NCBI RefSeq assembly: GCF_000247645.1
Contig: NZ_AHWA01000006.1
Location: 434,001 to 498,000 of the forward strand
Direction of reading: 5' to 3'
DNA: 64,000 nucleotides
From: Salinibacterium sp. PAMC 21357
GTDB taxonomy: Bacteria; Actinomycetota; Actinomycetes; Actinomycetales; Microbacteriaceae
The notes below the pieces were generated by a model, which was not told the DNA's origin, searched no databases, and was given only the letters and a program-made list of their open reading frames with translations. The translations under genes and the position numbers were made by a program. Shown piece after piece: positions 40,135 to 42,674 of the stretch. The stretch's first letter is position 1. The number at the start of each line of letters is the position of its first letter.

Positions 40135-40204
40135 CTGGCTCGCGCTTCGAACCCTGAGGTTAGTGCTGCGCGTTCTGTCAGATACGAGCCGGGCTGCGAT
40201 GTTG

Positions 40205-40286
40205 TGCGGAAGGCGGGACTTGAACCCGCACGCTCGAAAGCACAGGAACCTAAATCCTGCGTGTATACCAATTTCACCACTCCCGC
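40205..40286 (-). tRNA. tRNA-Leu (anticodon UAG)
   Basis: The minus strand folds into a class II tRNA. The acceptor stem is GCGGGAG/CUUCCGC. The D-arm contains GGTATACAC. The anticodon stem CAGGA/UCCUG holds loop TTTAGGT (anticodon TAG). A long variable arm UGCUUUCGAGCG and T-loop GTTCAAGTCC follow. The discriminator base is A. CCA is not encoded. Confidence 0.93.
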
Positions 40287-40436
40287 TGGCCGGTCAATCT
40301 TAGCGCGAGATTGGGCAACCGCGAATCACCTATGGCGTAGCTTCATTTTTGCTGTGCACGGCCCCGCCGACCCCGCAATCCTCGTGTTTTAGGAGGTGGA
40401 GGGTGTAATTTGAGATGTGTCTTCCCTATGGAGACG

Positions 40437-41495
40437 ATGTCCGCGATCGCGCCTGCCAAGAGCCAAATGAGCCACAGCTTGCGCGCCGCACGAAGCAAGG
40501 AGAGCGACATTACCGTTCACGAGCTCCAATCGAGCCTTTTCACTCTCGACTCGGCTAGCGCCGAAGCGATTCGTACTGCTGCAGAGCGCATTACTGCGCA
40601 CCCAAATGAGAGCCCTGATGACTTCGGTCGCCAGGCTCTTGCTGCAGCCTTCAGCTTGCCTGAAGAGGTCCGTGCAGCTGTTCTGAATTTTGCTGAGGTC
40701 GGCTCTGAAGCCGGAATCATGGTTGTGCGTGGTCTGTATGTCGATGAAGACCTGACAGACACCCCGCTCGACAACAAGAGTGGACTCGGTGCTGGCACCG
40801 TTTTCGCTAAAGAGATGGCAATGCTTGCCCACCTCCTGGGCAGCATGGTTGCTTACGAGGCTGAAGGCAACGGCCACCTCATCCAAGACATGGTTCCGAA
40901 CCCGAAGCTTGCCGTGACTCAGCAGTCGCAAGGCTCGAAGGTTGAGCTTGAAGCTCACACCGAGCAGTGCTTCTCTGACTTCAAGCCCGACTATGTAATC
41001 CTCGGGGCTCTTCGCGGCGATGAGAACGCCAAGACGTATGCTTTCTCGGGTCGCAAGCTGGTGCAGCACATGTCTGCAGACGACGTGGCAAAGCTTCGCC
41101 AGCCGCTGTGGGCAACCACGATCGACGAGTCGTTCCAGCCGTACATCCCTAGCCCGGATGCCGTGCGTGGCCCGTTCCCGATTCTCACCGGTCCCGAAAA
41201 TGACCCGTACATTCTGGTCGACCAAGACCTCATGCACGGCATCACGGCAGAAGCTCAGCGCCTGCTGGGTCGTGTCGTTGAGACGTACATCGAGCACCGC
41301 GACGCCCACGTGTTGCAGGCAGGTGACCTGCTGATGCTCGATAACCTTCGCGCGATGCACGGCCGTTCAATGTATACCCCGCGCTTTGATGGTAAAGACC
41401 GCTTCATTGCTCGTGGTTTCGTTGTGCGTGATCGTCGCAAGCTGTGGCCTCAGCTGCTCGACGACCGTCGCACGCTCGCAGCGGTTTACAGCTAA
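40437..41495 (+). CDS. Fe(II)/2-oxoglutarate oxygenase, clavaminate synthase/VioC/AsnO-like
   Basis: The 352-residue TauD-superfamily enzyme has the facial triad His174-x-Glu176 (EAHTEQCFSDFKPDYV) and distal His308 (LDNLRAMHGRS), with Arg326 as probable 2-oxoglutarate anchor (DRFIARGFVVRD). The H-T-E version, with the following Gln-Cys-Phe and Asp-Tyr, is the pattern of VioC, AsnO and clavaminate synthase, which hydroxylate free amino acids such as Arg or Asn. The start is uncertain: ATG 40437 is chosen, with TTG 40410 (strong AGGAGG upstream) and ATG 40428 as alternatives. It stands alone, with no peptide synthetase nearby, so a free amino acid or osmolyte substrate is likely. Confidence 0.85.
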   Translation: MSAIAPAKSQMSHSLRAARSKESDITVHELQSSLFTLDSASAEAIRTAAERITAHPNESPDDFGRQALAAAFSLPEEVRAAVLNFAEVGSEAGIMVVRGLYVDEDLTDTPLDNKSGLGAGTVFAKEMAMLAHLLGSMVAYEAEGNGHLIQDMVPNPKLAVTQQSQGSKVELEAHTEQCFSDFKPDYVILGALRGDENAKTYAFSGRKLVQHMSADDVAKLRQPLWATTIDESFQPYIPSPDAVRGPFPILTGPENDPYILVDQDLMHGITAEAQRLLGRVVETYIEHRDAHVLQAGDLLMLDNLRAMHGRSMYTPRFDGKDRFIARGFVVRDRRKLWPQLLDDRRTLAAVYS

Positions 41496-41519: not shown

Positions 41520-42674
41520 TTAGTTCGTCACAACGCGGGTCGACTGCTCCGGCAGTCGGCCCGCGTTTGTGCGTTGCGGAAGTAACAAGAGCCAGACGAT
41601 TGTCACGAGGCAGAGCTGGCCGAGGATGGCCAAAGCGGGGCCGGATGGGGCTGTATCGCCGCCGCCGATTGCGAACGTGTCGGCCAGAGACATCCCCATG
41701 TTGAATCCTGCAAAGCCGTGGAATAGGAGAGTTAGGCCAACAATGGTTAGCCCGCTGGCGGCTAGTGCCCGGGCCGACATCCGACCCCCTAGTTTTGGCG
41801 CGAGACAGATGCCACCGAATGCTAGAGCGGCGAGCGACCAGAAAACTCCCCAGGACCAAATTAGGTAGGGGAACGGCGACTCTCCGGCCGCCGCCATCTG
41901 GGCATAGATGGCGTCGAGGCTGAGCCCTGGCACTGCTGCGAGCGGATTCCACACCACGATATGCAGCGTGCCGATTGCAACGGTGGCGAACGTCAGCAGG
42001 ACTGTTGTGACGGCGACCAGCCATTGGGTGCGGCGGCGAATCGGTACCCGATCGTGCGAAGAGTTACTGCTGGCAGCAATCGTTAGCGCTATGGGGGTCG
42101 CCAATACGGCCACCACGACTACGACTAGCGGCACCAGCATCAGTAGAGCGACCGTGATCACCACAGCGGCCAGTAGCCAGACGGTCACGGATGATGGGCG
42201 CAGTCGAAATGTTCGGCTCGAGCCTCCCTTGTTCTGGCGAGAAGCAGCTACTTGAGTGATGATCGCACGCACTGTGGCCAGCACGCCAACGACGCTGAAA
42301 GTGATCGCAGCCACCTTCAGAATTAGCGCTGCCGCAGCGAGCAGCGCGGCGCCCGGCCCCGAGCTCGACTGGGGCACGTGATAGCCGCCCCAGAGAAAAA
42401 GCCCCGCGCCGAGAATGCCCGCGCTGATGAAAGCGCCAAGCGCCCAGCGCGCTCGGCGCGCGGCAACAGCAGTCAGGGTGATGCCGGTCACCTCGGGGGC
42501 ATCGCGGTCGATTGTGATCGCGATGATGGCAGCTCCCCACACGATGGACGTCGCGGGCAGATCGAGCTCGGCCGCGCCGTCGAGATCTGCTTGCCATTCT
42601 TCGCCGTAGCGAGTTGCCGCGGCGGTGGGAAGGGTGCGGGCAATCGCGGTGATCGCCCACCGGGCGAAGCTCAT
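41520..42674 (-). CDS. Multi-pass membrane protein paired with PadR
   Basis: The 384-residue protein has an N-terminal cytosolic segment (ARTLPTAAATRYGEEWQADL) like the short prefix found in PadR-associated membrane proteins, and about ten hydrophobic helices. No catalytic motif is recognised. Its start overlaps the PadR stop by 4 bp (ATGA). The pair resembles regulator/target modules acting in envelope stress or drug response; that is inference. Confidence 0.75.
   Translation of the reverse strand: MSFARWAITAIARTLPTAAATRYGEEWQADLDGAAELDLPATSIVWGAAIIAITIDRDAPEVTGITLTAVAARRARWALGAFISAGILGAGLFLWGGYHVPQSSSGPGAALLAAAALILKVAAITFSVVGVLATVRAIITQVAASRQNKGGSSRTFRLRPSSVTVWLLAAVVITVALLMLVPLVVVVVAVLATPIALTIAASSNSSHDRVPIRRRTQWLVAVTTVLLTFATVAIGTLHIVVWNPLAAVPGLSLDAIYAQMAAAGESPFPYLIWSWGVFWSLAALAFGGICLAPKLGGRMSARALAASGLTIVGLTLLFHGFAGFNMGMSLADTFAIGGGDTAPSGPALAILGQLCLVTIVWLLLLPQRTNAGRLPEQSTRVVTN

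What the first reader, a model, noticed from the sequence alone, without database searches (positions are those of the whole stretch)
40437..41495. Orphan VioC/AsnO-like amino-acid oxygenase
The H-T-E...H triad and surrounding motif match 2-oxoglutarate enzymes that hydroxylate free amino acids for antibiotic biosynthesis. No peptide synthetase, ligase or resistance gene is nearby. It is possibly a stand-alone hydroxylase making a hydroxy-amino acid osmolyte or signal. The strongest ribosome-binding site sits before TTG 40410, leaving the start open.
Basis: partly seen in the sequence, partly recalled or inferred. Interest (0 to 1): 0.55.

Follow-up and report, generated by a model that had tools for sequence, protein, structure and literature searches.

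The report
Lysine 3-hydroxylase with AUU start
A marine actinobacterium carries a lone gene that most likely makes 3-hydroxylysine, and comparison of related genomes suggests that its protein starts at the very rare codon AUU rather than at a usual start codon, so simple gene finding gets its beginning wrong and its production may be throttled by the translation machinery.

Summary
It is a clavaminate-synthase-like Fe(II)/2-oxoglutarate oxygenase (Pfam TauD). The closest solved protein is KDO1, an L-lysine 3-hydroxylase (44% identity, 269 bits, against 116 for AsnO and 87 for the best arginine hydroxylase). All ten KDO1 residues that PMC6224419 names for iron, lysine and 2-oxoglutarate are identical; AsnO keeps seven. 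Best prediction: free L-lysine to 3-hydroxylysine. It occurs in 17 of 27 genomes of the Salinibacterium genus, in all 17 beside tRNA-Leu. The own genome has no NRPS condensation domain.

The unexpected part is the start. ATG 40437 and TTG 40410 are not conserved. DNA upstream of the conserved block carries in-frame stops, frame-breaking indels and no codon periodicity; 6 of 17 loci have no ATG/GTG/TTG to use there. All 17 have an SD-like motif six bases before ATT (15) or ATC (2) at window 40509, where codon periodicity begins. infC of the same genomes starts at ATC likewise. This predicts weak, IF3-sensitive translation, as shown by others for infC and Streptomyces sigR. The role of the product is unresolved.

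The parts
40509..41495 (+). Proposed coding sequence of the lysine 3-hydroxylase, 328 codons from the ATT start, then the stop
40509..40511 (+). ATT start codon (ATC in L012 and L013)
   Evidence: 17 of 17 loci ATT or ATC
40497..40502 (+). Shine-Dalgarno AAGGAG, six bases before ATT
   Evidence: AAGGAG in 16 of 17, AAAGGGG in L011
40497..40535 (+). Start block with frozen synonymous sites, Shine-Dalgarno to codon 8
   Evidence: 447 of 447 four-fold pairs identical in codons 1-8
40402..40411 (+). Invariant GGTGTAATTT, possible -10 element (TGTAAT)
   Evidence: 17 of 17; the consensus promoter scan found nothing
40502..40518 (+). Possible 5-pair hairpin with the start codon in its 7-base loop
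   Evidence: 98.6% of cells paired but no covariation; no folding excess
40956..40964 (+). H-T-E of the iron triad (KDO1 H178 and E180)
41358..41360 (+). Distal His of the iron triad (KDO1 H314)
40204..40286 (-). Divergent tRNA-Leu (anticodon TAG) next to the gene
   Evidence: 17 of 17 genus loci and L032

Best explanation
The gene encodes a stand-alone Fe(II)/2-oxoglutarate-dependent L-lysine (3S)-hydroxylase of the KDO1 type. It would bind free L-lysine with the carboxylate on the conserved Arg and the epsilon-amino group between two Asp, and convert it with O2 and 2-oxoglutarate to 3-hydroxylysine, succinate and CO2. Family, iron site and substrate-site residues are shown by sequence comparison; the reaction is inferred. 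Translation starts at ATT 40509 (ATC in two relatives) behind a strong Shine-Dalgarno site, not at 40437 or 40410; this is shown by comparative evidence only. By analogy with infC and Streptomyces sigR (inferred), IF3 disfavours this near-cognate codon and keeps enzyme level low. What the cell does with 3-hydroxylysine is not resolved.
For: KDO1 is the best solved match by a wide margin; ten of ten named KDO1 residues identical at 135 of 304 overall, AsnO keeping seven of ten (residues from PMC6224419). 17 of 17 loci have an SD-like motif six bases before ATT or ATC; 6 of 17 lack any ATG/GTG/TTG between the upstream in-frame stop and ATT. Variable sites by codon position are 7, 5, 4 upstream and 0, 2, 12 in the first 33 codons, on 7 of 17 loci. 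infC starts with ATC in 17 of 17 matched genomes. No PF00668 in the own genome, no PF04183 in 27 of 27.
Against: No activity, N-terminal peptide, ribosome profile or IF3 test exists here. 11 of 17 loci do have an in-frame canonical codon upstream, among them ATG (L015, L002, L007, window) and GTG (L013, L014). The other relatives looked at, L032, L018 and L111, have ordinary ATG or GTG candidate starts, so the AUU start would be a genus feature. The rph control also shows raised synonymous conservation at its start. Identity to KDO1 is moderate, so arginine, ornithine or another basic amino acid is not excluded. AlphaFold2 gave no usable model.
Confidence: 0.7

Rival explanations
1. The gene starts at a canonical codon upstream (ATG 40437, TTG 40410 or the TTG ten codons before ATT), with an N-terminal extension that varies between species; ATT is an internal Ile codon.
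For: 11 of 17 loci have such a codon in frame; AGGAGGTGG precedes TTG 40410 in the window.
Against: 6 of 17 have none; upstream variability shows no codon periodicity; spacing differs by 1 and 2 bases between loci of one clade; ATG 40437 is open in 3 of 17 only.
Confidence: 0.12
2. The enzyme hydroxylates a basic amino acid other than lysine (arginine, ornithine) or acts at another carbon.
For: GntD, clavaminate synthase and VioC models also match, below cut-off; the Asp pair suits any positively charged side chain (PMC6224419).
Against: KDO1 scores 269 bits against 87 for the best arginine hydroxylase, and all ten named KDO1 residues are kept.
Confidence: 0.2
3. The product 3-hydroxylysine goes into the cell wall peptidoglycan or into lysine-containing membrane lipids.
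For: Salinibacterium peptidoglycan contains Lys and Orn (passages of PMC7033078 and PMC6962226); hydroxylysine lipids exist in other bacteria (PMC4484230, search listing only).
Against: The composition quoted for S. amurskyense lists no hydroxylysine; 10 of 27 genus genomes lack the gene.
Confidence: 0.08
4. The frozen start block is an RNA element (hairpin or binding site) that regulates translation in its own right, apart from the start codon.
For: 447 of 447 four-fold pairs identical in codons 1-8, against 0.525 in the rest of the gene; a 5-pair stem can form around ATT.
Against: No compensatory change, fold z-scores near 0, and the rph control also shows raised conservation at its start, 0.716.
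Confidence: 0.25

Closest known systems
KDO1, L-lysine 3-hydroxylase of Catenulispora acidiphila (PDB 6f2a)
   Same: Family, iron triad and all ten named ligand residues; 44% identity over 304 residues
   Different: Activity of the window protein untested; proposed AUU/AUC start in this genus
K3H (GenBank ABS05421.1), makes (2S,3S)-3-hydroxylysine (PMC9288024, passages read)
   Same: Same predicted reaction
   Different: Its sequence was not compared here
AsnO, VioC, clavaminate synthase
   Same: Same family fold and iron triad
   Different: 116, 87 and 104 bits against 269 for KDO1; AsnO keeps 7 of the 10 KDO1 residues
Genes with near-cognate or other rare starts: infC, pcnB, Streptomyces sigR (GTC), S. 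aureus cvfC1 (AUU) and ccpN (AUA)
   Same: Strong Shine-Dalgarno before a rare start that gene finders miss; for sigR and ccpN conserved across species (passages of PMC5472188, PMC13009471, PMC9410913)
   Different: Here a metabolic oxygenase; IF3 dependence not tested

Membership tests
Clavaminate synthase-like (TauD-fold) oxygenases | TauD profile over the curated cut-off | tested here: met
   43.4 bits, cut-off 27
Clavaminate synthase-like (TauD-fold) oxygenases | His, Glu/Asp, His triad and the two conserved Arg | tested here: met
   H183, E185, H317, R331, R335 (numbering of the 361-residue frame) aligned to KDO1
KDO1-type L-lysine 3-hydroxylase | Residues that hold lysine and 2-oxoglutarate in KDO1 | tested here: met
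   10 of 10 named residues identical; AsnO 7 of 10
KDO1-type L-lysine 3-hydroxylase | Conversion of L-lysine to (3S)-3-hydroxylysine | not testable with these tools
   Needs the purified enzyme
VioC arginine hydroxylase (TIGR03946) | NCBIfam equivalog cut-off | tested here: not met
   120.1 of 418.6 bits
Clavaminate synthase Cs1 (NF043003) | NCBIfam equivalog cut-off | tested here: not met
   146.9 of 450 bits
GntD L-enduracididine hydroxylase (NF041363) | NCBIfam equivalog cut-off | tested here: not met
   167.3 of 345 bits
Genes with an IF3-controlled rare start codon | Conserved start other than ATG, GTG, TTG behind a strong Shine-Dalgarno | tested here: met
   ATT or ATC in 17 of 17, AAGGAG in 16 of 17; comparative evidence only
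Genes with an IF3-controlled rare start codon | Repression by IF3, rise when the codon is made canonical | not testable with these tools
   Needs a reporter assay

The most novel reading that the evidence does not exclude
In the Salinibacterium genus a lysine 3-hydroxylase shares the initiation design of infC: a near-cognate Ile codon as start inside a nucleotide-frozen start block. If so, an amino-acid oxygenase is wired to IF3 level, and 3-hydroxylysine is made mainly when initiation stringency falls.
Probability: 0.3. Interest if true: 0.6.

Novelty: new variant of a known kind. Interest (0 to 1): 0.42.

Why it matters
Few bacterial genes are known to start at AUU, AUC or AUA; those named in the passages I saw are infC, pcnB, cvfC1 and ccpN. 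A conserved case in a metabolic enzyme would show that start-codon throttling reaches small-molecule metabolism. It would also correct the N-terminus of a gene that ATG/GTG/TTG-only ORF finding gives as 279 to 361 residues in different species. The enzyme is in addition a candidate biocatalyst for 3-hydroxylysine, a sought building block.

Tried and rejected
Rejected: VioC or AsnO as nearest kin (scores); starts at 40437 and 40410; a downstream start at TTG codon 49 (codon periodicity begins at codon 0; this TTG is CTG in L009 and L010, read); a conserved leader peptide in another frame (ATGAAGTGT is interrupted by a stop as second codon in L003 and is absent from L007; read by eye); an NRPS cluster (no PF00668 in the own genome, while 4 of 14 control genomes ring); NRPS-independent siderophore synthetases (PF04183 in 0 of 27); the start block as a wider regulon motif (among 27 genomes, 18 of them of the genus, exact copies lie only at this locus, in 12 of 12 gene-bearing genomes; all other hits have 2-3 mismatches).

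Led nowhere: AlphaFold2 on a six-sequence alignment gave pLDDT 33.7, so no fold search was run. The promoter and terminator scan found nothing. Rfam gave the tRNA and one sub-threshold match. Neighbours of two clade-2 loci show no partner gene shared with the window apart from a VTT-domain protein.

Papers: one search listed 10 of 50 hits, none with Salinibacterium; one search listed 3 of 3, none relevant by title and abstract. Salinibacterium with hydroxylysine gave one paper, and Salinibacterium with start codon gave one; in the passages seen neither concerns this gene.

Not done: a tree with VioC, AsnO and clavaminate synthase; comparison with the K3H sequence ABS05421.1; a count of ATT/ATC starts over the whole genome. 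Left out of the 17-locus start analysis: L018 (57%) and L019 (31%), matches in other genera.

Full report
What was checked. The frame 40410-41495 encodes an oxygenase with Pfam TauD at 43.4 bits (cut-off 27). Against solved structures the best match is KDO1, an L-lysine 3-hydroxylase (6f2a, E 5.9e-79, 269 bits). Next come AsnO (116), clavaminate synthase 1 (104), clavaminate synthase 3 (101.5), L-arginine beta-hydroxylases and CmnC (87 and lower) and a lysine 4-hydroxylase (53). NCBIfam models for GntD, Cs1 and VioC match far below their cut-offs.

Substrate. PMC6224419 (read: parts 1-3 of 6 of the text) names the residues that hold iron, lysine and 2-oxoglutarate in KDO1: S168, H178, E180, T204, D234, S236, D268, H314, R328, R332. 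On the printed alignment all ten are identical in the window protein, at 135 of 304 (44.4%) overall identity. In the AsnO row of the same output seven of ten are kept; S168, T204 and D234 are N, A and P. I therefore predict free L-lysine and attack at C3. This is inference; no activity was tested.

Distribution. In a search of 60 relatives, 19 matched: the own genome and 16 of 26 others of the genus, plus two in other genera at 57% and 31%. Wider samples: 8 of 398 family genomes at E 1e-60 (two genera), 1 of 396 phylum genomes, its own, and 11 of 396 order genomes at E 1e-50, the own one and ten of one other genus at 57-59%. Named contigs are Salinibacterium species and marine actinobacterium PHSC20C1; their lengths equal those of five genus contigs. 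ARAGORN finds a tRNA-Leu with anticodon TAG beside the gene, pointing away from it, in 17 of 17 genus loci and in L032 (another genus of the family, 70%), but none in L018 or L111 of the distant genus.

Orphan status. Ten window proteins between 37646 and 48294 gave: HxlR, zinc-type dehydrogenase, VTT, PadR, DUF2510, Roadblock, EamA, MarR, FGGY kinase and one without a match. In two clade-2 loci the scanned neighbours differ, a VTT protein in one apart. The own genome has no condensation domain, while 4 of 14 control genomes ring. PF04183 is absent from 27 of 27 genus genomes. No partner for the product was found; an unsearched enzyme elsewhere in the genome is possible.

The start codon. In the 17 aligned loci the spacing from the invariant GGTGTAATTT to ATT is 95, 97 or 98 bases in one clade and 47, 49 or 51 in the other, so the frame upstream is not kept. 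In six loci (L003-L006, L011, L016) an in-frame TAG or TAA stands before ATT with no ATG, GTG or TTG between, and the next canonical codon downstream is 26 (L016) or 49 codons in. The other 11 loci have one or more canonical codons in frame upstream, but at differing places: ATG 40437 has a counterpart in 3 of 17, TTG 40410 in 2 of 17. AAGGAG stands six bases before the codon in 16 of 17 (AAAGGGG in L011); the codon is ATT in 15 and ATC in 2. On the seven loci of equal spacing, variable sites by codon position are 7, 5 and 4 (of 32, 32, 33) upstream, but 0, 2 and 12 (of 33 each) in the first 33 codons from ATT. Coding constraint thus begins at or very near ATT. ORF finding restricted to ATG/GTG/TTG gives 361, 355, 279, 302 and 279 residues for the window, L002, L003, L047 and L049.

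Parallel with infC. In the own genome the infC frame has no canonical start before TTG 43 codons downstream of ATC; its N-terminus reads AAGGAGAACACGC-ATC-AGC-G, and ATC is present in 17 of 17 matched genomes. The two ATC loci of the hydroxylase read AAGGAGAACGAC-ATC-AGC-G. PMC5472188 (passages) states that infC starts with ATT in E. coli and ATC in Streptomyces, that Streptomyces sigR starts with GTC and is repressed by IF3, and that annotation misses such starts. PMC13009471 (passages) reports AUU and AUA starts of cvfC1 and ccpN in S. aureus, at about 10% of AUG expression in poor medium. PMC9410913 (passages) says infC and pcnB are the only two E. coli genes with AUU. IF3 control of the present gene is inferred from these.

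Synonymous freeze. Codons 1-8 of the hydroxylase are identical at 447 of 447 four-fold pairs, against 0.525 for the rest; codons 1-12 (0.826) exceed all 304 later windows. infC gives 544 of 544 against 0.653, but its codons 1-12 (0.777) are reached by 20 of 143 windows. The ATG control rph gives 308 of 430 (0.716) against 0.528, and its codons 1-12 (0.717) also exceed all 209 later windows, so part of the effect is common to gene starts. The pairs come from related genomes and are not independent. A hairpin with AUU in its loop pairs in 98.6% of cells but has no compensatory change and no folding excess (z 0.09 and 0.07). The cause of the freeze is open.

Role. The peptidoglycan of S. amurskyense is quoted as Lys, Orn, Ala, Gly, Glu, without hydroxylysine (legend passage of PMC6962226; table passage of PMC7033078). 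Hydroxylysine lipids are known from other bacteria (PMC4484230, listing only). No evidence here favours osmolyte, signal, wall, lipid or siderophore use. The enzyme is of a known kind; the conserved AUU/AUC start is the new point, and it rests on comparison alone.

Noticed in passing
L055 1495-1497 (infC of the own genome): infC starts at ATC behind AAGGAG, in 17 of 17 genomes compared; ATG/GTG/TTG-only ORF finding starts it 43 codons late.
   Followed up: yes
   Followed up: partly
L032 2499 (minus strand): The 70% orthologue in another genus of the family has an ATG about six bases after a TACCTT that resembles a -10 element, so its mRNA may be leaderless (by eye).
   Followed up: no
41535-41572, minus strand: Sub-threshold Rfam match to Pseudomonas sRNA P31 (24.6 bits, gathering 40), probably chance.
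   Followed up: no
41520-42674, minus strand: A 384-residue protein without a Pfam match, convergent with the hydroxylase; a similar protein follows the gene in L002 and L003 (by eye).
   Followed up: no
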